Shown: piece by piece, positions 2,551-36,395 of the stretch
How the letters are laid out: every line of letters starts with the position of its first letter
Numbering within the stretch: the stretch's first letter is position 1
Source: a virus
Length of the DNA stretch: 64,000 bases
IMG/VR virus record: IMGVR_UViG_3300046001_005260
Span: 1 to 64,000 of that record
Direction: 5' to 3' (one strand)
Program-made: the position numbers and the translations under genes
The notes under the pieces: model-generated
Databases searched by the model: none
What the model was told of the DNA's origin: nothing
The model's input: only the letters and a program-made list of their open reading frames with translations

Positions 2551-4212
2551 TTAGACCTTAAAAATTCCGGTTCTTCCGACCTTCAAAACGCCGTTTCCGT
2601 ATGCTCGCAAGTGACAGCGAAGATCATACGCGGCGTTGCTAGTTGGAGACCATTCCGGCGTGATTAACTGGATTGATCCAACCGGAAGGATTGAACCTGA
2701 AGCCGAAACCGACATTGCGCCATTGTGAGCAAGGTCAATACAGCGCGTGGCATCGGCATTTAAAGCAAGCTCGATATTGTAGAAGTCGCCCGAAACAATC
2801 TCAAGCTCGCAGAATGCTTGCAGCGTGTCAGCGGTCGTGAGCGCGGCATCGGCGGCGTCAACGTAAACTTGCGGAATTACAAGCGGTGCTGTCAGTAGCA
2901 GGTCAGTAACGGTTATTCCGCTGGTTGTAACCTCTAGCAAGTTTCCGTTGATTCCATCGGCTCGTGCGATGATATTTCTAACCATCGTTGATCCTGGAAC
3001 TGCCGCCTGGAATGCTGACACGTTGGCGACCCATCCAGTCGGCACGGCATTGCTCGCAATGGTCCCGTCAACGAACGGGTTGGGAGTAAGCCACGAAACG
3101 CTCCCGAAGTCAGGAATTGGATATTGAACCACGTTGTCAGTGTATGGCAATAGTTGCGCGGCCATGTATTCTCCGATGGTCGCTGCCCCGCAAATATTCG
3201 GGTGGATGTGATCCCCGGCAAACACTGAATCCATGTATCCGTCGCTGTTATCGTCAATCGAGGATTGATAGTCAAACCAAAGCATCCATCGGGAGTTTTT
3301 CGCCGCCGACAGAATGGCGTTAGTTGCAACCTGCGCGGCTTTCCATGCCGCTTCGTCGCCGCTTGGTCGGCTTGTCCGTGTTGGAGGAATCGCGACAGCA
3401 ATCAGCGTCTTTCCTGCTGCAATCACTTCGTCCCAAAGCGAAATGATATTTGCGGCAGCGGTAGAGTTGGCTGTCACGTTCATGTCGTTGGCCCCGACGC
3501 AAATCAAGATCGTATCAGCGTCGCTGTTGATCGCGTCAAGGAATGTTGTCCGGTATGTTCCGCCAACCATGAATCCTTCCGCCTTAATCCCTCCGATTCC
3601 ATGGTCGAATTTGCCGGTCAGTGAGTTTCTGGCAATCTCGATCTTGCGCTGGCAACGTGCTTTCATTTGCGCTGGCCATCCATTGCCAAGAAATTGAGTG
3701 ATGAAATACGGTGATCCAGGCGCATCCGATGTTGCGGCAATGATCGAATCTCCGACAACCGCAACCTTGGCAATCTTAATCCCTTTTGTCAGTCCTGTTG
3801 CGCTAAAATCGTATTGCGTGACGTTGGCAGGGGTGTCATAGCCAAGTAGGCGTTTCGGCTTGTGCGATTTGACCGTTGCGTTTGAGAATTGCCAATAGGC
3901 GTTAGAAACGCCAGAGACTTCGATTCGTAGCGGCTTCTTGGTTGCCAATTCCGCTGCGATCAGACCGTCAAGCATCGCGGCCCGCGCTGCCGAGTCTGTC
4001 GATTCTTCCGAAATCACTCGGAATGAAAACGAAGTAACCGCATTCTGTCCGATGCGCAAAAATGGCGCTGGCGAGTCAATCAAATCGACGGTTTCAACCT
4101 TCTTGTCCAACTGCGGTTCTAACTCGTCACTTTCCAGCATAGTGCCGAAATCGACAAGCACGGTGTTCGCGCCTGCCGGGTCGTATGTTAGTCGCCAATT
4201 GGATGATGTCAT
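2551..4212 (-). CDS. Tail protein with SGNH-type esterase domain, unit A (553 aa)
   Basis: An N-terminal structural part of about 150 residues is shared with the unit B copy at 42611-44500. It is followed by an SGNH/GDSL hydrolase domain: block I VAVVGDSI near residue 155, a GxND-like block CVGANDMN near residue 240 and the catalytic Asp/His block DHIHPN near residue 335. The C-terminal part looks like a carbohydrate-binding or fibre domain. SGNH hydrolases on virions usually deacetylate or de-esterify surface polysaccharide, so a role at the host surface is inferred. The two copies differ most in and after the hydrolase domain. Confidence 0.75.
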   Translation of the reverse strand: MTSSNWRLTYDPAGANTVLVDFGTMLESDELEPQLDKKVETVDLIDSPAPFLRIGQNAVTSFSFRVISEESTDSAARAAMLDGLIAAELATKKPLRIEVSGVSNAYWQFSNATVKSHKPKRLLGYDTPANVTQYDFSATGLTKGIKIAKVAVVGDSIIAATSDAPGSPYFITQFLGNGWPAQMKARCQRKIEIARNSLTGKFDHGIGGIKAEGFMVGGTYRTTFLDAINSDADTILICVGANDMNVTANSTAAANIISLWDEVIAAGKTLIAVAIPPTRTSRPSGDEAAWKAAQVATNAILSAAKNSRWMLWFDYQSSIDDNSDGYMDSVFAGDHIHPNICGAATIGEYMAAQLLPYTDNVVQYPIPDFGSVSWLTPNPFVDGTIASNAVPTGWVANVSAFQAAVPGSTMVRNIIARADGINGNLLEVTTSGITVTDLLLTAPLVIPQVYVDAADAALTTADTLQAFCELEIVSGDFYNIELALNADATRCIDLAHNGAMSVSASGSILPVGSIQLITPEWSPTSNAAYDLRCHLRAYGNGVLKVGRTGIFKV

Positions 4213-4225
4213 TCGGTCGATTTGG

Positions 4226-4729
4226 TTATACGCTCAAAGATGCGGCTTGCTCAAACATATCGTTCACTTGCTCTTCCGACAGGCTCAGCGCAACGGCCAA
4301 GCTCAGGATCGTCGGCGATTGGCGCGGAAAATCCGCGTTGTTGTCCCACGCGCTTTTGATGATTGTTCGCTGCGGTTCGTCCAGCGATTCAATCGCCGTT
4401 TCAGCGGCGGTCAGCAATCCCATGAGCGAAAGCACGGCCTTTGCCTGCCATGCCTTGATTGAGTCGGTTGGAGCTGGTTCCGTCGCGGAGGATTGCAACG
4501 CGGCAATCTCCGCCTCAAGCTCAGCAATGCGAGCGAGCGCAGCGGCGTTTACCGATCCAAGGATCGACGCCGATAGCTCGGTCGGGATTGGCCGTGCCTG
4601 CCCCGGCTTTTCGGTTATCACTTCGCCGCTATCGTCAATGTAGCGAGTCAATTCGACGTAATGAGCGCCAGCCAATTTGCCATCTTTGAAGCGCAAAAGG
4701 ATTTCATCAGGTAGGTTTTGAGTGGTCAT
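4226..4729 (-). CDS. Tail-region protein of unknown function, unit A (167 aa)
   Basis: Residues 85-167 form an all-alpha domain with a DEPQRTIIKSAWDNNADF motif, a type I recall near phage tail fibre genes. A short coiled coil (ARIAELEAEIAALQ) precedes it. The gene sits between the fibre gene and the SGNH gene, where unit B instead has a lectin-like gene (44960-45601) and an unrelated 150-aa gene, so this is a variable slot. The biochemical function is unknown. Confidence 0.6.
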   Translation of the reverse strand: MTTQNLPDEILLRFKDGKLAGAHYVELTRYIDDSGEVITEKPGQARPIPTELSASILGSVNAAALARIAELEAEIAALQSSATEPAPTDSIKAWQAKAVLSLMGLLTAAETAIESLDEPQRTIIKSAWDNNADFPRQSPTILSLAVALSLSEEQVNDMFEQAASLSV

Positions 4730-4732
4730 AAG

Positions 4733-5719
4733 TTATGAAATTATTGCTCGGTCAGTTACTCTCCGCCAGTTGGTTCCGTCTGAAAAACATAGTACGGCTC
4801 CGCCAGATTCGTTGGATACATAGATGGTTGACCCGGAGGAGATAGATGCAGATGGTACGGTGGCGACGGTGAACGATTTCAGTTGCACCGTGTTGTCGCA
4901 AATCAGGTTTGCTAGCTTTAACGAACCTGCGAAACTACCGTTAGCTCCAGTTCCTATTCCAAGGAGGCCAGCAGACAAACGGCTTAAACTTGTGTCTTTT
5001 GTAGATGTTGGAGTGCTAGAACTCCACGTTAAATAAAATGTATTTGCCAACAATAACACCCCGCCGGATGTTGTCACGAATCTTGCGTCGGCCCCATAAA
5101 ACCCAGTCGATGCGTTGACTATTGTCAACGTCGGACTATCGCCAGTCCCCAACCCCGCCGCGTTTCGCAGATTCGCCTTTGTCGTCGCGTCGGTGGTTAG
5201 CGTACCAGCTGTTAGCGTGCCGCTGATTGTACCGTTGGTTAGTGCGGCAGTGGCGGCGGCAGTGGCGGCGGTGTCCGCGTGGGACACGTTGGCTGTTAGG
5301 AGATCATCCGGCTGCACGGCGCTGTCGGCTTTAGCGCCTTGGGCGGCAGTGGCCGCTCCGATGTCGCCCGGGGCCGTGATCTTGCCTTGGAAGATCGTTG
5401 AAAAGTAGGTTCCAAGCGTGCTCTTGATCGCGGCCCAGGTGAACTTTTTCCAGCCGAAACTGGCGGCGCTGTCTGCCAGGCCGATCTCATCCGCGTCCAC
5501 GGGCGCGCCCTTCGCATCCGCAGCATGGACGATTGCTGCGATGGCCGCAGCATCTACGGTGCCATTCCCGCCACCGGCAGCCCATTCCGCCTCTGTCATC
5601 GGCGGGTCATCGGTGGTGGTGGCGAGGTAGGATTGATAGGCAGACTTCCCGACCGGGCCAATTTCCCGCGACACGGCCGTTGTCACTTCTACCGTTCTAA
5701 CGACAACCCTATCACTCAT
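4733..5719 (-). CDS. Tail fibre-like protein, unit A (328 aa)
   Basis: The protein is low in charge, rich in Thr, Ser, Gly and Ala, with a collagen-like/fibre shaft composition. The N-terminal 120 residues (MSDRVVVRTVEVT; VDADEIGLADSAAS.GWKKFTWAAIKSTL) match the unit B fibre at 45601-46518, while the C-terminal half is unrelated. A conserved N-terminus that anchors to the virion and a variable distal half are typical of receptor-binding fibres. Its start overlaps the end of the 113-aa gene upstream. Confidence 0.65.
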   Translation of the reverse strand: MSDRVVVRTVEVTTAVSREIGPVGKSAYQSYLATTTDDPPMTEAEWAAGGGNGTVDAAAIAAIVHAADAKGAPVDADEIGLADSAASFGWKKFTWAAIKSTLGTYFSTIFQGKITAPGDIGAATAAQGAKADSAVQPDDLLTANVSHADTAATAAATAALTNGTISGTLTAGTLTTDATTKANLRNAAGLGTGDSPTLTIVNASTGFYGADARFVTTSGGVLLLANTFYLTWSSSTPTSTKDTSLSRLSAGLLGIGTGANGSFAGSLKLANLICDNTVQLKSFTVATVPSASISSGSTIYVSNESGGAVLCFSDGTNWRRVTDRAIIS

Positions 5720-28287: not shown

Positions 28288-28494
28288 TTAGGCGGCTGCG
28301 ATGGTGGCGTATTGAAAGTTCCAGAAGTCGTATCCTTCGATTGACCGGCCCCATGAGATGCCTTTCAGTATTGCTGTCCGCGCGTCTTTGCATGGCTCAT
28401 TGAGCATTTGAGGGTTGGTCATTTCGGCAGCTCTGATTGCCTTTTTTGCAAGTTCTGGTGGGAGGGTTTCGAGTAGTTCGCGGATTGTTTTCAT
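28288..28494 (-). CDS. Small unknown early protein, unit A (68 aa)
   Basis: MKTIRELLETLPPELAKKAIRAAEM... with an aromatic C-terminal part (YDFWNFQYAT). The leader has CTAACCAACCAAGACA directly before the ATG. It is the first gene downstream of the promoter-like site at 28533-28561. Confidence 0.55.
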   Translation of the reverse strand: MKTIRELLETLPPELAKKAIRAAEMTNPQMLNEPCKDARTAILKGISWGRSIEGYDFWNFQYATIAAA

Positions 28495-28532
28495 TGTCTT
28501 GGTTGGTTAGTCGCTCGCGGCGACAGGGGGAA

Positions 28533-28561
28533 ATTATCAAAATGTTTCACTTGTGCAACAA
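28533..28561 (-). promoter_or_regulatory. Sigma70-like promoter candidate in an AT-rich gap
   Basis: TTGTTG, 17 bp, GATAAT on the minus strand. It lies in a 163-bp AT-rich gap between the methyltransferase stop and the gene starting at 28494. The gap has no ORF. Confidence 0.45.
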
Positions 28562-28657
28562 AAATATGCTAACTGATGCGATATTTTTTTCTTGGTTGCG
28601 CAAACCGCTTGCAATTCAATCGTTTATGGTTGTTTCTAACTTTTCAACTTGTGACAA

Positions 28658-29629
28658 TCAGCGTAATGCGGAATCGGTTATCGCTGCTTGGATGAATTGC
28701 GCGGCGACTTGCGGCACGATTGCATTGCCGTAGCCCCGCAAGAGTCCCACGCGACCGGGAAACCCATCAGCCAGCGGGAATGTCCCGCTCTCAACACGCC
28801 TCGCTTTTCCGTCTGTGCATAGGAGGATGTCGAAGGAATCCCAAGCGTTGCCTCGCAGTTCAACGGTAGCGAGTTCCTGTGGAATTGTGACGGGCCCGCA
28901 TTGTTCGCCGAGTCCTGCACCGTTGGTGTTGCCCACCCCACAAGGTCCGGCACATTCTGCGGCGTCATGCGTGGTCGGGCCCCTCCGTGATCTTTCCCGC
29001 GATTGGTCGAGTTGTTGGGCCCCTCGCTCGCCTGCGGCGTCGGCCACCCCGCTAGCTGTGCTGCTGTTTGCAGCGAGTCGCCGCCCTGTCTCGTTTCCGT
29101 CCAGCTTGCACCAGTCCCCTCGCTCGCCTGCGGCGTCGGCCACCCAGTAGAGTCTTTGGCGGATGTGGGGCGCGCCGACGCCCGCAGCGCACAGATCGGC
29201 ACCCGCCGCGGCATATCCCATTGTTTCCAAGTTAGCGAATACTCCAGCGAGCCATTTACGTCCACCAGCGCTCGCAACCTGCTCTCCAAAGACGACTGAA
29301 GGGCTGCACCGATTGATGAGGCGACGGAACGCTGGCCATAGATGACGCGGATCATTTCGGCCCAACTGCTTCCCGGCGTGGCTGAATGGTTGGCACGGGC
29401 AGGAGCCTGTCCAAACGGGACGATCTTCGGGCCATCCCGCCAGTTGAAGAGCGAGAGGCCATCCGCCGATCCCGGCGAAGAAGTGGCATTGAGTGTATTC
29501 GGTGAGTTCATTAGGTTCAATTTGTGTGATGGATCGTTCATCGACCACGCCGGGAGGAATCAGGCCGGCGGCGATTAGTTCGCGCAGCCATGCTGCGGCT
29601 TTCGGGTCAAATTCGTTGTAAAAGTTCAT
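28658..29629 (-). CDS. C5-cytosine DNA methyltransferase, unit A (323 aa)
   Basis: Motif I FFAGIGGWPLAL near residue 51, motif IV GSCPCQPFS near residue 75 (catalytic Cys), motif VI-like VVFGEQV near residue 111 (GEQ instead of ENV), motif VIII RQRLYWVADA near residue 155, and motif IX/X GLLRGYGNAIVPQVAAQF near residue 300. The target-recognition region holds a repeated VADAAGERG block encoded by a 30-bp direct repeat. It probably protects phage DNA from restriction. No cognate restriction enzyme is adjacent. Confidence 0.85.
   Translation of the reverse strand: MNFYNEFDPKAAAWLRELIAAGLIPPGVVDERSITQIEPNELTEYTQCHFFAGIGGWPLALQLAGWPEDRPVWTGSCPCQPFSHAGKQLGRNDPRHLWPAFRRLINRCSPSVVFGEQVASAGGRKWLAGVFANLETMGYAAAGADLCAAGVGAPHIRQRLYWVADAAGERGDWCKLDGNETGRRLAANSSTASGVADAAGERGAQQLDQSRERSRRGPTTHDAAECAGPCGVGNTNGAGLGEQCGPVTIPQELATVELRGNAWDSFDILLCTDGKARRVESGTFPLADGFPGRVGLLRGYGNAIVPQVAAQFIQAAITDSALR
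28678..29541 (-). CDS. Large overlapping frame inside the methyltransferase gene (287 aa)
   Basis: A 287-codon frame lies within the methyltransferase gene in another minus-strand register. It begins MNDPSHKLNLMNSPN and contains SLTWKQWDMP, two GWPTPQASEG blocks and WLMGFPVAWDSCGA. I recall very similar proteins (GWPTP repeats, WLMGFP ending) from other phages, always with C5-methyltransferases. It may be a second product or a by-product of a conserved methyltransferase sequence. Expression is unproven. Confidence 0.35.
   Translation of the reverse strand: MNDPSHKLNLMNSPNTLNATSSPGSADGLSLFNWRDGPKIVPFGQAPARANHSATPGSSWAEMIRVIYGQRSVASSIGAALQSSLESRLRALVDVNGSLEYSLTWKQWDMPRRVPICALRASARPTSAKDSTGWPTPQASEGTGASWTETRQGGDSLQTAAQLAGWPTPQASEGPNNSTNRGKDHGGARPRMTPQNVPDLVGWATPTVQDSANNAGPSQFHRNSLPLNCEATLGIPSTSSYAQTEKRGVLRAGHSRWLMGFPVAWDSCGATAMQSCRKSPRNSSKQR
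29020..29145. repeat. 30-bp direct repeat in the methyltransferase target-recognition region
   Basis: Identical 30-bp copies occupy 29020-29049 and 29116-29145. They are 96 bp apart, a multiple of three, so both reading frames keep their register. Recombination between them would delete 32 codons cleanly. Confidence 0.8.
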
Positions 29630-31198: not shown

Positions 31199-31479
31199 GG
31201 TTTGCAGTTGGTTAGGATGTTACCAACGATTTTCTGCCCGGCGACGCTGCGAGAAACAACCCGCTCGCCGTCTTCCGTGAACTGGATGCGAATAAGCTTC
31301 TTTGCTTTGAGTGCCTGGAGCCTCCCGTTTAGCGTCTGCAAGGCGATTCCAGCCGTTGCGGCGAGTCGCTGGGTGGTTTGCTCCCGGTCGCATAAAAAAA
31401 GGAGAGACGCCTCTTTCAGGCCCATCTTGTGCGAGTTGGCGAGGCGGGTTAGCGCGTCGATGAATTGTTGTTTTGTCAT
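31195..31479 (-). CDS. MarR-like winged-helix regulator candidate, unit A (94 aa)
   Basis: KEASLLFLCDREQTTQRLAATAGIALQTLNGRLQALKAKKLIRIQFTEDGERVVSRS is a good match to the helix-turn-helix and wing of MarR-type regulators. It lies directly downstream of the 159-aa gene. It could regulate the early operon. No second domain. Confidence 0.65.
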   Translation of the reverse strand: MTKQQFIDALTRLANSHKMGLKEASLLFLCDREQTTQRLAATAGIALQTLNGRLQALKAKKLIRIQFTEDGERVVSRSVAGQKIVGNILTNCKP

Positions 31480-31955
31480 TGGATTTCAAAGGTGAATTTT
31501 TCCATTGCCGCGATGATTTCGCTTGCCTCATTGAGAGCGGTCCACTTGCGGCGGAACGTCTCAACATCGGACTTGCACTTCCGGAGGACTTGCGCCCGGT
31601 AATGCTCGCTTGTCATGGCGTTATGAGTGCTGACATAGATTCCCCGCGTGCCTGCGTCTGGATCTTCATCAGCGCATTCCCGGCGCTCTGGCGTGACGTT
31701 GACGAATGCCCGAACCTGCACGGTTTTTTCATCCGCAGTTTGGTAAGTTACCTTGATTCTGCGAATGAGGCAGGCGGCTTGAACGAGTCGGTATTGAGCG
31801 GCAGCTTTCGAGTTGTCCCACTGGAAAAAGCGGTGCAGCGGAGAGGTTTTCGCCTTTGCCGCTTCCAGCACGATTTCCGGCGTGAGTTGCCCGTGTTTTT
31901 CTGCGAGTTCGCGGATTGCGTCTGATGCTTTCGGTTTGTTTTCTATGTCAGTCAT
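31476..31955 (-). CDS. Early protein of unknown function, unit A (159 aa)
   Basis: The N-terminal half (HGQLTPEIVLEAAKAKTSPLHRFFQWDNSKAAAQYRLVQAA) has a pattern common in phage proteins next to the 210-aa family found here at 32200. The start at 31955 overlaps the end of the repeat-array frame (ATGA). Long leader with pentamer repeats (array 1). Role unknown, perhaps DNA metabolism given its partners. Confidence 0.6.
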   Translation of the reverse strand: MTDIENKPKASDAIRELAEKHGQLTPEIVLEAAKAKTSPLHRFFQWDNSKAAAQYRLVQAACLIRRIKVTYQTADEKTVQVRAFVNVTPERRECADEDPDAGTRGIYVSTHNAMTSEHYRAQVLRKCKSDVETFRRKWTALNEASEIIAAMEKFTFEIQ

Positions 31956-32179
31956 TGTTTTGTTTGGTTTGTGTTGGATGGGTGATTTATACCGCTCTCC
32001 CGTGCGGTTTGTGCCTGCGATGCCCTGCCACGCCCCGCCCCGCCCCGCCATTCCCAGCCTGCGATGCCTGGCCAATCCCGGCCCCGCCTTGCCGTTCCTG
32101 CGGTGCTGAGCCCTGCCTTGCCGGTCCATGCCGGGCCTGCGAAGGCTGGCAAAACATCGGCTTGGCTGGCGTTTGGCAT
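31952..32179 (-). CDS. Possible 75-aa product of pentamer-repeat array 1
   Basis: The frame MPNASQADVLPAFAGPAWTG... then runs of Gly, Arg, Ala and Trp ends with an ATGA overlap to the next gene and has a CACCAACCGCAAGCC leader, as real genes here do. But 5-nt repeats leave all three frames open when no stop is in the unit, so the frame may be a by-product of the array. Translation is uncertain. Confidence 0.3.
   Translation of the reverse strand: MPNASQADVLPAFAGPAWTGKAGLSTAGTARRGRDWPGIAGWEWRGGAGRGRASQAQTARESGINHPSNTNQTKQ
31996..32150 (-). repeat. Degenerate pentanucleotide (GGCNN) array 1
   Basis: On the minus strand the sequence is built of degenerate 5-nt units GGCRN, with the longer blocks GGCATCGCAGG (twice) and CACCGCAGGAA. 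It occupies the 244-bp gap between the 210-aa and 159-aa genes. Array 2 (32890-33045) has the same blocks. Function unknown. Confidence 0.65.
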
Positions 32180-32199
32180 TGGCTTGCGGTTGGTGAGTG

Positions 32200-32832
32200 T
32201 TAGGCCAGCTTGAAGGTTCCCCATCCCATCCCGGCGCTCATCTTGCTATCCGGCCTGCCTTCTCCGATCCCGACTTGCGCCCCGACTCGCGTCATAAGGT
32301 TTGCCGCGTCAGTCGCCGTGAATTGATCCGCATCGTATTGCACTCGCACGGTTGCCGACCATGGCCAGAACTTCGCACGAACCCGCAAGTCACAAACTCC
32401 GGTCGCGTTGCGAGCGTGCATCAGGTGGGATTCAGGCTCGCCTTCGATCTTGATTAGCGGCACGCCGTCCACCTTGTCAAACCCGTCTGGAAGGATGAAA
32501 ACCGACAGCTTGGCCAGCGTCATCTTGAATCCAACCAATCGACAAGCTGAAATCATAGCATTGCGAAATGCTGCCGCCGGTATGCCGTTCCATCCTTCAT
32601 CGGATAGATGCTGCGCGCCGATGAAATCCGCGTGGAAATCCCGAGCTTCTTTCGCCTTTTTCTTGTTGGCTTGACTCCCTGCTTCGTGCTTGTCACGCAT
32701 GGCGTTGATTGCCTTTTCGGAAAACCGCAACTGGATATAAGGCGCGGTGCCGACGATTTGAAACTCCGCCGTATGGATGCGCGGTGCTGTGATGGATACG
32801 TTTTCGATTTGTTGCTTTTCTTTCGTGCTCAT
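32200..32832 (-). CDS. Conserved phage early protein of RAMP-like appearance, unit A (210 aa)
   Basis: The protein begins with a beta-strand IVGTAPYIQLRFSEKA, has GIPAAAFRNAMISACRLVGFKMT in the middle and ends with a glycine-rich VGIGEGRPDSKMSAGMGWGTF loop. The glycine-rich end recalls ferredoxin-like RAMP folds, but this is a similarity of pattern only. Such proteins are common in phage early regions with unknown function. Pentamer arrays flank the gene on both sides. Leader has ACCAACCAAATACAAAC. Confidence 0.6.
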   Translation of the reverse strand: MSTKEKQQIENVSITAPRIHTAEFQIVGTAPYIQLRFSEKAINAMRDKHEAGSQANKKKAKEARDFHADFIGAQHLSDEGWNGIPAAAFRNAMISACRLVGFKMTLAKLSVFILPDGFDKVDGVPLIKIEGEPESHLMHARNATGVCDLRVRAKFWPWSATVRVQYDADQFTATDAANLMTRVGAQVGIGEGRPDSKMSAGMGWGTFKLA

Positions 32833-32889
32833 GTTTGTATTTGGTTGGTGTTTTGTTTTGTCTGGGAGAATGCGGCGGATTTTATACCC

Positions 32890-33045
32890 CGGCCCGCCAA
32901 CCGGATTTTGCTATGCCCGGCCCGGACCTGCCCTGCCATGCCTCGCCTGCGATGCCTTGTCTGGCCGTAGCTTGCCAAGTATCGCGATTCCTGCGGTGCC
33001 TTTATATGCCTCGCCTCGCCTAGCGATTCCTGCGGTGGCGGTCAT
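32890..33045 (-). repeat. Degenerate pentanucleotide (GGCNN) array 2
   Basis: Same type of GGCRN units and blocks as array 1: GGCATCGCAGG once and CACCGCAGGAATCGC twice on the minus strand. It lies in the 309-bp gap upstream of the 210-aa gene. A 44-codon frame (32911-33045, MTATAGIARRGEAYKGTAGI...) with a CCAAACC-type leader runs through it; its translation is uncertain. Confidence 0.65.
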
Positions 33046-34113: not shown

Positions 34114-35052
34114 TTACGCATCAAACACGTCGTCCGCTGGCTTGGCTTCTACCGCATGTTCCGGTTCCGCTGGCGTATCGGTCGCTGGAGACGCCTTGCG
34201 CGCCCGTGTGGACGTCGTGGCGGCATTTGGCGGGGCGTCCAAGATGTCCGACGCTTCGCGCTCCGGCTTGGCTCCGCCGAACCAGTCGCCAGCTTTTGAC
34301 ATGCCGGATTTCAACGAGTTGAAAATCCCTTGCAGGTCGGCAATCTCATCGGGCAAGATGGTATCCAGCGAATGCGCTAAACGAGCCTCGATCATCGCGG
34401 CCGTCACGCCGAATTTGCCGAACGCCTTAATCATCTTCCGCGCCCGGTCCGCAATCGGCTCGTCATTGCCTCCGGCGAGCGTCCGGCGGCATTCGCTTAA
34501 CGCAGCCTCCACGATGTCGGGCGGCAGGATGGACAGGATGCGAGCGCGCAACCTCCGCGCGCCCTGGTTGGCGGTGAGTTCGTAAATGTCGCGCTCGTCC
34601 TTCAACTCAATCCCTCCGCCCTTGGTATCGCGAATGTGGCGAACGCTGAATTTCTGAGAGCTTGACGTGTTGGTTTCCAAGTCCCAAGCGTAAGCCTCCA
34701 TTTCGCTCAACCCGTCCCGCCGCGATAGCTCCCGAATGCCGTAGTCGATGTTGCCCCATACCCGCGCCAATTCCTCGGCAAGTCGGATGGATGGACCCGA
34801 CACGGTTTGCCCGCCGCGTGGGAATGAATATGTGGCTTCTTCCGCCAGTCCGACCCGCTTGCATGAGTCGATGATTTTCGAGTAAGCGCGCGCCTCGTTT
34901 CGCGGGAATCGCTTGGCGATTACCAACTTGCCTTGAGCCTCCGCGACTGCCCGCGATGATTCGATTTCGACGGTCCCGGCGTTGACGTGTTCCGACAAGC
35001 TGCGGGCGAATGGATTGACCAGCGAGGTCGTGGTGGTTAATTCTGTGTTCAT
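34114..35052 (-). CDS. Putative recombination-associated (annealing-type) protein, unit A (312 aa)
   Basis: The core AVAEAQGKLVIAKRFPRNEARAYSKI, FPRGGQTVSGPSIRLAEELARVWGNIDYGI and ELTANQGARRLRARILSILPPDIVEAAL is a pattern common in phage early operons beside RecE-like nucleases. This pairing suggests an annealing partner analogous to RecT, although I did not recognise RecT itself. The C-terminal 60 residues are disordered, Ala/Pro/Thr-rich. Leader contains TAACCAACC. Confidence 0.5.
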   Translation of the reverse strand: MNTELTTTTSLVNPFARSLSEHVNAGTVEIESSRAVAEAQGKLVIAKRFPRNEARAYSKIIDSCKRVGLAEEATYSFPRGGQTVSGPSIRLAEELARVWGNIDYGIRELSRRDGLSEMEAYAWDLETNTSSSQKFSVRHIRDTKGGGIELKDERDIYELTANQGARRLRARILSILPPDIVEAALSECRRTLAGGNDEPIADRARKMIKAFGKFGVTAAMIEARLAHSLDTILPDEIADLQGIFNSLKSGMSKAGDWFGGAKPEREASDILDAPPNAATTSTRARKASPATDTPAEPEHAVEAKPADDVFDA

Positions 35053-35058
35053 GGTTGG

Positions 35059-35253
35059 TTAGTATGTTCGGTGTGGATTCTTGCGGACTTCGACCAGCGC
35101 CGCCGATAGGTCAAGCGAGGCGCGCTTCATGGCAGATCGCTTACGGCATGGCCCGCTCTCGTTTTTGTTTTGGATTGCTTTCCTTGCCAGAGAAACAAAC
35201 CTCTCAGCTTGTGATATGGCTTCTTTTACTGCGGTAAACTCGATGAGTGTCAT
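35059..35253 (-). CDS. Small helical protein, unit A (64 aa)
   Basis: MTLIEFTAVKEAISQAERFVSLARKAIQNKNESGPCRKRS... is helical and basic in its second half. It lies between the RecE-like and annealing-type genes, so a recombination accessory role is possible. Not recognised. Confidence 0.5.
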   Translation of the reverse strand: MTLIEFTAVKEAISQAERFVSLARKAIQNKNESGPCRKRSAMKRASLDLSAALVEVRKNPHRTY

Positions 35254-35259
35254 GGTTTG

Positions 35260-35544
35260 TTATTGTTCGGATTCTAGGATTTCTCGGACGCGGATATGCT
35301 TGCGTGTTCCCATTCCGCTGCTTTGAAATAGTTCGCCATCATCAAGCCACATTCTCCACTCCCTCGGCTTTGGCGGTTCGGGCTTGCGGCGGTATTCGGC
35401 GCATGTTCTCCACTCTGGATGCGAATCCATCTTTCGCCAGTTTTTAGCTTCGTTCATTTTTGATTCCCACCGTTCCCACGGCGTCTCCGTTGTCATTGCA
35501 TCCTTGGCGTATTCCGCCATCAATTCAGCGTGTTTGTGTTTCAT
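35260..35544 (-). CDS. Unknown protein, unit A (94 aa)
   Basis: MKHKHAELMAEYAKDAMTTETPWERWESK... and a Trp-rich PKPREWRMWLDDGELFQSS. The region PWERWE and CAEYRRKPEP resembles small phage proteins with a WE(S/Y) repeat that bind nucleotides or nucleic acid, but I cannot assign it. Leader ACACCAACCAAAC. Confidence 0.5.
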   Translation of the reverse strand: MKHKHAELMAEYAKDAMTTETPWERWESKMNEAKNWRKMDSHPEWRTCAEYRRKPEPPKPREWRMWLDDGELFQSSGMGTRKHIRVREILESEQ

Positions 35545-35561
35545 GTTTGGTTGGTGTTTTG

Positions 35562-36395
35562 TTAAGCCCATTTGGGCAGGTCTATTTCGGTTACTCCGCG
35601 CGTTAAACCCGGCCACTCGCCGGTTTCAAGACACCGCGCGTAGGTGTCGAGATCACGTTGATATTCCATCCGACCGCGCATTATCATCGCGTCGGTGGCT
35701 ACATAGCAAGCGGATAGATAAGGAGGATCCTTCTCAATCGCTAAGAACATAAATCCACGCGGCATTTCTCCAAACGCCTCCGCGTATCCGTCGCTGTAAA
35801 ACGCCGCCTGGACGTGGTAGCGAAACGCGGCTATTGACTTAGCGAACGGATCCGGCGCGGCGTCTCTGGTGGTTTTCAGGTCAAGGATCGCACCGCTGGT
35901 TAGAATCGCGTCTGGCCGGCACCGGCATTCTATGTCGTTTGACTTCCAGAAAATCGACGTTTCGGCGAGTTCGATTTGCGAAAGTGCCTTGCGTGCTATC
36001 GGATCGGCCCATGCGGCGTCACGGGTTGCGAGGAGTTCCGCGTGTTCATCAATCGTGATTGGTTCACGGTCGATCACCGCTGCGTCGAATGCCTGCCACC
36101 ACGCAATCGCTTCAAGGGTTGCTGTGGATGGTTTCTTGGCTTCTCTCTGCTTCTTGGTCGGCCTGCTTGGCGCGTCATCAGGGATAATTATCACGCTGTC
36201 AGCGAACTTGTCCGGCTCCAAAATCGCCGTATGCACCAAGCTGCCCCATCGCATCGCATCCGTGCGCGGCGTCGGGTTGTCGCGCCGGTAACGGTAAAGC
36301 GCCGGAGCGCGGGCGATTAGGTCTAGACCGGATTTCGAGATTGACGGGTTGGCGTGGTAGTCGGGGTTTGATATGTTTGGGTGGATGGTTGTCAT
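35562..36395 (-). CDS. RecE-like PD-(D/E)XK exonuclease, unit A (277 aa)
   Basis: The N-terminus SISKSGLDLIARAPALYRYRR and RWGSLVHTAILEPDKF are the usual opening of DUF3799/RecE C-terminal nucleases. The catalytic core is ECRCRPDAI near residue 160 and ILDLKTTRDA near residue 172 (D...DxK), followed by YHVQAAFYSDGY. It would resect double-strand ends for annealing-based recombination. It overlaps a small zinc-ribbon gene by ATGA. Confidence 0.8.
   Translation of the reverse strand: MTTIHPNISNPDYHANPSISKSGLDLIARAPALYRYRRDNPTPRTDAMRWGSLVHTAILEPDKFADSVIIIPDDAPSRPTKKQREAKKPSTATLEAIAWWQAFDAAVIDREPITIDEHAELLATRDAAWADPIARKALSQIELAETSIFWKSNDIECRCRPDAILTSGAILDLKTTRDAAPDPFAKSIAAFRYHVQAAFYSDGYAEAFGEMPRGFMFLAIEKDPPYLSACYVATDAMIMRGRMEYQRDLDTYARCLETGEWPGLTRGVTEIDLPKWA

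What the first reader, a model, noticed from the sequence alone, without database searches (positions are those of the whole stretch)
31956..33045. Two related pentanucleotide (GGCNN) arrays flanking a conserved early gene
Arrays at 31996-32150 and 32890-33045 are built of degenerate 5-nt units and share the blocks GGCATCGCAGG and CACCGCAGGAA. Each lies in the leader of an early gene (159 aa and 210 aa). Both can be read as Gly/Arg/Ala/Trp-rich peptides with normal start context and coupling. I recall similar arrays and peptides beside this 210-aa family in other phages, which would make this a recurring, undescribed element (RNA structure, ribosome leader, protein site or recombination track).
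Basis: partly seen in the sequence, partly recalled or inferred. Interest (0 to 1): 0.8.

Follow-up and report, generated by a model that had tools for sequence, protein, structure and literature searches.

The report
VIPR guide-RNA arrays beside phage Vipr
The two odd five-letter repeat tracts are guide-RNA arrays of VIPR, a phage-borne relative and proposed ancestor of CRISPR first described in a 2026 preprint, and the gene between them encodes its Cas7-like partner protein; this is a new member of a very recently described system.

Summary
On the minus strand (the coding strand) GGCNN arrays lie at 32014-32137 and 32910-33024, scoring 48 and 28 against a shuffle maximum of 12.5. All 38 relatives of the 210-aa protein carry such arrays. 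Of 120 viral loci found by the DNA pattern alone, 80 encode a homologue, and 176 of 177 arrays are co-oriented with it.

The 210-aa protein has a Csm3/Cas7-type RAMP fold. A family profile seeded from it hits PDB 36pp, "SUSP1 Vipr protein", at 4e-41. The VIPR preprint (PMC13142463) describes this arrangement: a phage Vipr RAMP plus vrRNAs of GGY/NN repeats with a 3' tail. The NN dinucleotides pair with target DNA under a 1-nt-skip rule.

Added here: a covarying pseudoknot tail, a conserved vap-like neighbour, guide modules of 5n+4 nt, and complete guide turnover between phages whose vipr genes are 99% identical. The peptide reading is rejected. No natural target was found. Verdict: new member of a known kind; activity of the window's short, partly degenerate arrays is unproven.

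The parts
32200..32832 (-). vipr gene (210 aa): Cas7/Csm3-like RAMP protein, phrog_4652; G-loop at the C-terminus (GIGEGRPDSKMSAGMGWGTF)
   Evidence: AF2 model pLDDT 78.8, pTM 0.73; Foldseek and VIA top hits all Csm3/Cas7; family profile hits SUSP1 Vipr 36pp at 4e-41
32910..33045 (-). upstream vrRNA array (GGCNN), partly degenerate; precedes vipr
   Evidence: array score 28 at 32910-33024; parsed; relative L001 has 252 nt here with the same tail
32872..32915 (-). 3' tail of the upstream array: CATAGCAAAATCCGGTTGGCGGGCCGGGGTATAAAATCCGCC, H-type pseudoknot (CCGG/CCGG plus TGGCGG/CCGCC-type helix)
   Evidence: covariation (the near-identical L001 tail is one of the scored rows)
32014..32137 (-). 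downstream vrRNA array with three modules of 39, 39 and 44 nt, each ending in the 4-nt phase-slip unit CGCA before GG
   Evidence: array score 48; parsed
31976..32013 (-). 3' tail of the downstream array: ACAAACCGCACGGGAGAGCGGTATAAATCACCC, same pseudoknot class (second helix short, GGG/CCC)
31476..31955 (-). 159-aa vap-like accessory gene (phrog_15946): N-terminal helix/strand domain plus a 41-residue C-terminal helix; probably DNA-binding (inferred)
   Evidence: found in 54 loci together with vipr, always on the same strand; AF2 pLDDT 91; no confident fold match

Best explanation
This is a VIPR (Viral Interference Programmable Repeat) locus in a phage early operon. The two arrays are transcribed with the early genes and yield vrRNAs: strings of GGY/NN units capped by a pseudoknotted 3' tail. 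The 210-aa Vipr protein, a Cas7-like RAMP, polymerises along the repeats and holds the invariant GGY triplets. The variable NN dinucleotides then pair with target DNA (NN, skip one, NN) and silence competing phages or satellites. The 159-aa neighbour is the accessory (vap) protein. Shown here: the array, the RAMP fold, the Vipr homology, the linkage, the orientation, the tail covariation and the guide turnover. Taken from the preprint by homology: RNA binding, the DNA targeting code and repression. Not shown: transcription, activity or targets of this particular locus.
For: The array is real. All 38 homologue loci carry arrays; 80 of 120 array loci found without reference to the gene carry the gene; 176 of 177 arrays are co-oriented with it. 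Arrays with degenerate NN (entropy 2.4 bits or more) have the gene within 1.5 kb in 82 of 114 loci, while homogeneous GGCNN microsatellites (entropy below 1.8) have it in 0 of 110. RAMP fold. The profile hits SUSP1 Vipr in the PDB at 4e-41, and an HMM grown from the window's family finds the SUSP1 vipr gene at 3e-34 with GGY arrays on both sides of it. Matching published description. Tail pseudoknot covariation exceeds all 2000 permutations. Guide modules are fully replaced between phages whose vipr genes are 99.3% identical (L010/L013: 0 of 7 shared). Conserved vap-like neighbour.
Against: The window protein alone does not reach 36pp by phmmer; the link needs the family profile. No natural target was found under any skip rule in about 4.4 Mb (both strands) of held viral and host DNA, and exact scans of viral contigs gave none or a chance-level number. 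The window's arrays are shorter and more degenerate than those of its relatives, so they may be decayed. The accessory protein is not detectably homologous to the SUSP1 neighbour (bit score 0.5).
Confidence: 0.93

Rival explanations
1. TRAP-like autogenous control: the Cas7-like protein coats GGC triplets spaced by two free bases in its own mRNA leader and regulates early-gene translation or termination. NN are mere spacers.
For: The architecture (triplet plus 2-nt spacer on the transcribed strand, in leaders of early genes, flanking the gene for the binding protein) fits.
Against: If NN were spacers they should drift with the gene. Instead whole NN modules are replaced between phages whose vipr genes are about 99% identical. 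A structured 3' tail caps each array. The preprint shows NN-dependent DNA recognition for the homologous system.
Confidence: 0.04
2. The arrays encode Gly/Arg/Ala/Trp-rich leader peptides.
For: Open frames exist in the window arrays, and two cultured phages have genes annotated inside arrays (Gorge gp53, UmaThurman gp40).
Against: 37 of 153 strong arrays have stops in all three frames and length modulo 3 is flat. GGC is held in all frames, which coding does not explain.
Confidence: 0.01
3. An ordinary GGCNN microsatellite or slippage product.
For: GGCNN microsatellites are common in bacterial genomes.
Against: Those are homogeneous in NN and never beside the gene (0 of 110). The phage arrays have near-maximal NN entropy and a fixed partner gene and strand.
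Confidence: 0.01

Closest known systems
VIPR of Escherichia phage SUSP1 (type II in PMC13142463; PDB 36pp; KT454805)
   Same: Homologous RAMP protein in a phage; GGY/NN arrays flanking the gene on its coding strand; array followed by a 3' tail described as pseudoknotted; one small accessory gene next to vipr.
   Different: The window uses GGC rather than mostly GGT; its arrays are chains of 5n+4-nt modules sharing one tail rather than separate vrRNAs of about 100 nt; the tail sequence and the accessory protein differ.
VIPR with staggered arrays of overlapping vrRNAs (fig. S18 of the preprint)
   Same: Possibly the same array class as the modular arrays here.
CRISPR type III Csm3/Cas7 backbone subunit
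   Same: RAMP fold with C-terminal G-loop (VIA Z 9-10.5).
   Different: About 10-15% identity; no other cas genes or CRISPR array seen next to it; 5-nt rather than 6-nt RNA repeat.
TRAP, trp RNA-binding attenuation protein ((G/U)AG repeats; from general knowledge)
   Same: Triplet plus about 2-nt spacer read by a protein oligomer on leader RNA.
   Different: Different protein fold; NN is variable cargo here, not a spacer.

Membership tests
VIPR | Vipr protein: ancestral RAMP homologous to SUSP1 Vipr | tested here: met
   Family profile A2 (62 sequences, window first) hits 36pp_D at 4e-41; the reverse check finds SUSP1 vipr at 1e-43/3e-34; RAMP fold
VIPR | Flanking noncoding arrays of GGY alternating with hypervariable NN | tested here: met
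   in the window some units read GGA or are irregular
VIPR | Structured 3' tail after the repeats (pseudoknot in the SUSP1 clade) | tested here: met
   27 distinct tails, loop/downstream helix covaries, 0 of 2000 permutations; the window's downstream tail keeps only a 3-bp second helix
VIPR | Encoded by a phage or provirus, with a small accessory vap gene | tested here: met
   IMG/VR virus record of 68 kb; phrog_15946 neighbour in 54 vipr loci, same strand; its identity with one of vap1-6 not testable here
VIPR | Natural targets matched under the 1-nt-skip rule | tested here: inconclusive
   No enrichment in 4.4 Mb; exact viral scans gave 0, 0, 0, 3, 0 and 5 hits, consistent with chance
VIPR | vrRNA expression, RNP formation, dsDNA binding and repression | not testable with these tools
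   Needs experiments; shown for SUSP1 (and vrRNA expression and RNP for P. fulva) in PMC13142463
CRISPR-Cas type III (Csm3) | Other cas genes and a CRISPR array beside the RAMP gene | tested here: not met
   Immediate neighbours in the window are exonuclease VIII, phrog_3657, phrog_15946 and small unknown genes; best Csm3 profile match of any member is only 0.02
TRAP-type attenuation | TRAP fold and (G/U)AG repeats | tested here: not met
   RAMP fold and GGC repeats

The most novel reading that the evidence does not exclude
In this clade one transcript with a single tail carries several short guide modules (6-9 dinucleotides each) separated by a fixed phase-slip block (A[ACT] then [CG]GCA). 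It may therefore act as a multi-guide string whose modules are gained and replaced wholesale, faster than point mutation in the neighbouring gene, by a module-acquisition process not yet described.
Probability: 0.3. Interest if true: 0.7.

Novelty: new member of a known kind. Interest (0 to 1): 0.5.

Why it matters
VIPR is proposed as the viral precursor of CRISPR and was first reported in 2026. This locus and its relatives tie VIPR to existing labels (PHROG 4652 = Vipr; PHROG 15946 = a vap-like gene). They place it in well-studied culturable phages of Mycobacterium and Gordonia, where genes are annotated inside the arrays. They also provide a natural series of near-identical phages with completely different guides. 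That series makes the open question of how phages acquire new VIPR guides directly testable.

Tried and rejected
Homology of the 210-aa protein by Pfam, NCBIfam and PADLOC: nothing above noise. Window protein alone against PDB sequences: no hit. Rfam on the locus: no hit above a gathering score, no hammerhead. Literature by repeat words: nothing useful. Peptide reading: rejected. Microsatellite reading: rejected. Target decoding: k-mer scans with 0-3 nt skips on held DNA and six exact viral scans gave no convincing target; of the three hits two are copies of one sequence, and none sits in an obvious rival-phage regulator. The five hits were not examined one by one. NN composition fits codon positions 1-2 better than other frames, but only weakly (r = 0.40). 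Fold search for the accessory protein: no confident match. A whole-family genome search for targets of the Gorge guides could not be started.

Full report
1. The observation. On the minus strand of the window, which is the coding strand of the early genes here, two tracts of GGCNN units lie at 32014-32137 and 32910-33024. They score 48 and 28 in a phase-aware scan; ten shuffles of the whole window reached at most 12.5, and no other place in the window scored 14. They mark a regular phase slip: a unit GGCA[TC] is followed by a 4-nt unit CGCA and then GG starts the next run. Modules are therefore 5n+4 nt long: 39, 39 and 44 nt in the window's downstream array, and 39, 44 or 49 nt most often in relatives.

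2. Association. The 37 viral-contig relatives of the 210-aa protein and the cyanophage Cy-LDV1 locus all carry GGCNN arrays on the coding strand close to the gene, with scores of 50 to 205 for the strongest array of each locus. The reverse test was blind to the gene. Thirteen GGCNN units plus GGC were searched as a DNA pattern in viral contigs, and 80 of 120 loci encode a homologue of the 210-aa protein under an iterated HMM; several of the rest are cut off at the array. 176 of 177 arrays lie on the strand of the gene; the nearest array downstream commonly starts 4-18 or about 73 nt after the end of the open frame. Redundant loci were not removed from these counts. Bacterial genomes scanned with the same pattern mostly hold homogeneous microsatellites such as (GGCTC)n. 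Splitting loci by NN entropy separates the two things cleanly: with entropy of at least 2.4 bits the gene is within 1.5 kb in 82 of 114 loci, and with entropy below 1.8 bits in 0 of 110.

3. The protein. The AlphaFold2 model of the 210-aa protein (pLDDT 78.8, pTM 0.73) matches Csm3/Cas7-type RAMP proteins in essentially all top rows: Foldseek best E 2.2e-4 and VIA Z up to 10.5 over 129 residues at 3.4 A. The family consensus ends in a RAMP-like glycine loop, GxGxxRP...GRF. All 62 diverse members fall into phrog_4652, function unknown. The profile of these 62 sequences finds one strong match among PDB sequences: 36pp chain D, "SUSP1 Vipr protein", E = 4e-41. Conversely the HMM grown from the window family finds the SUSP1 gene at 28477-29079 of KT454805 with E = 3e-34, and GGY/NN tracts flank it.

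4. What is known. PMC13142463 (bioRxiv, April and June 2026) reports VIPR: a phage-borne ancestral RAMP (Vipr), vrRNAs of 9-16 YNNGG repeats with a structured 3' tail, and recognition of double-stranded DNA in which only the NN dinucleotides pair, with one target base skipped between them. It reports repression of competing phages and satellites, accessory vap genes, seven types, and array forms that include staggered arrays with overlapping vrRNAs. The locus in the window has this anatomy.

(a) The array tails of this clade are H-type pseudoknots: ACCG[CG]-loop-[CG]CGG-GGTATAAAT-downstream arm. The loop and the downstream arm covary (TGGAGCG/CGCTCCA, GCGAT/ATCGC, TGGCGG/CCGCCA, CTGG/CCAG, GGGAG/CTCCC). 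Mean helix length is 4.89 bp against 3.99 for swapped arms, and none of 2000 permutations reached it. (b) The 159-aa gene (phrog_15946) accompanies vipr in 54 loci, always on the same strand, including Cy-LDV1, Gorge, ODay and UmaThurman; it is predicted with high confidence to have an N-terminal helix/strand domain and a long C-terminal helix, but has no confident fold match. (c) Guide modules turn over far faster than the gene. L010 and L013 have vipr genes 99.3% identical over the compared stretch and share none of 7 + 7 modules; L015 and L017 (99.1%) share none of 3 and 8; L013 and L014 (99.1%) share one; only L019 and L020 (identical) share five. A mere protein-binding track would not be expected to behave like this. 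(d) The window's closest relative L001 (97% protein identity) has a 252-nt upstream array with the same first module and tail, where the window has about 126 nt.

6. Mechanism. Shown: array, strand, partner gene, fold, homology to Vipr, tail structure, turnover. Inferred from the homologous system: Vipr polymerises on the repeats, holds GGC, and exposes NN for pairing to DNA, blocking transcription of rival elements. Not shown: whether the window's short and partly degenerate arrays still work, and what they target. Target searches failed: k-mer tests on 4.4 Mb found no preference for the 1-nt skip, and six exact scans of viral contigs found 0, 0, 0, 3, 0 and 5 matches, consistent with chance. 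This does not contradict the code, since exact scans of a few guides in a fragmentary collection have little power. NN composition resembles codon positions 1-2 more than other frames, but weakly.

7. Rivals. A TRAP-like leader-binding role fits the spacing but not the wholesale NN replacement or the capped tail. Peptide coding fails on stops and on frame. Microsatellite origin fails on entropy and linkage.

8. Verdict. A VIPR locus: new member of a recently described kind, of the modular and possibly "staggered" array form. The claim that the element is undescribed was overtaken by the 2026 preprint.

Noticed in passing
L279:3590-3754 and L281:4610-4933: Genes annotated inside VIPR arrays in cultured phages (Mycobacterium phage Gorge gp53; Gordonia phage UmaThurman gp40) are probably not real proteins.
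   Followed up: partly
L187:1030-1560 and 3789-4343; L136:1083-1619 and 3373-3924: Two vipr-like genes in one locus, one pair in an alphaproteobacterial contig and one in a viral contig.
   Followed up: no
L279:3791-5008: Gorge gp54 (405 aa) spans both the Vipr-like and the accessory-like regions (the HMMs place them at 3995-4522 and 4592-4969), which suggests a fused or frame-disturbed vipr-vap gene.
   Followed up: partly
L226:158-587: An array in a Verrucomicrobia contig uses a different separator (around GGCATGGAACG), so separators differ between clades.
   Followed up: no
L046:7607-9175 and L127:12352-13553: Very long arrays (1.2-1.6 kb), far larger than published vrRNAs of about 100 nt.
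   Followed up: no
window 28658-29629 (-): C-5 cytosine DNA methylase gene (PF00145, 2.7e-14) overlapped by a 287-aa open frame at 28678-29541 in another frame of the same strand.
   Followed up: no
window 34114-36395 (-): Exonuclease VIII-like gene (phrog_412, DUF3799) and a phrog_3657 gene just upstream in the same direction: a recombination module beside vipr.
   Followed up: no
L071, L109, L110, L111, L115, L127, L134, L147, L152, L240: Degenerate GGCNN arrays with no vipr homologue found in the stretch held; some may have a more distant partner protein.
   Followed up: no
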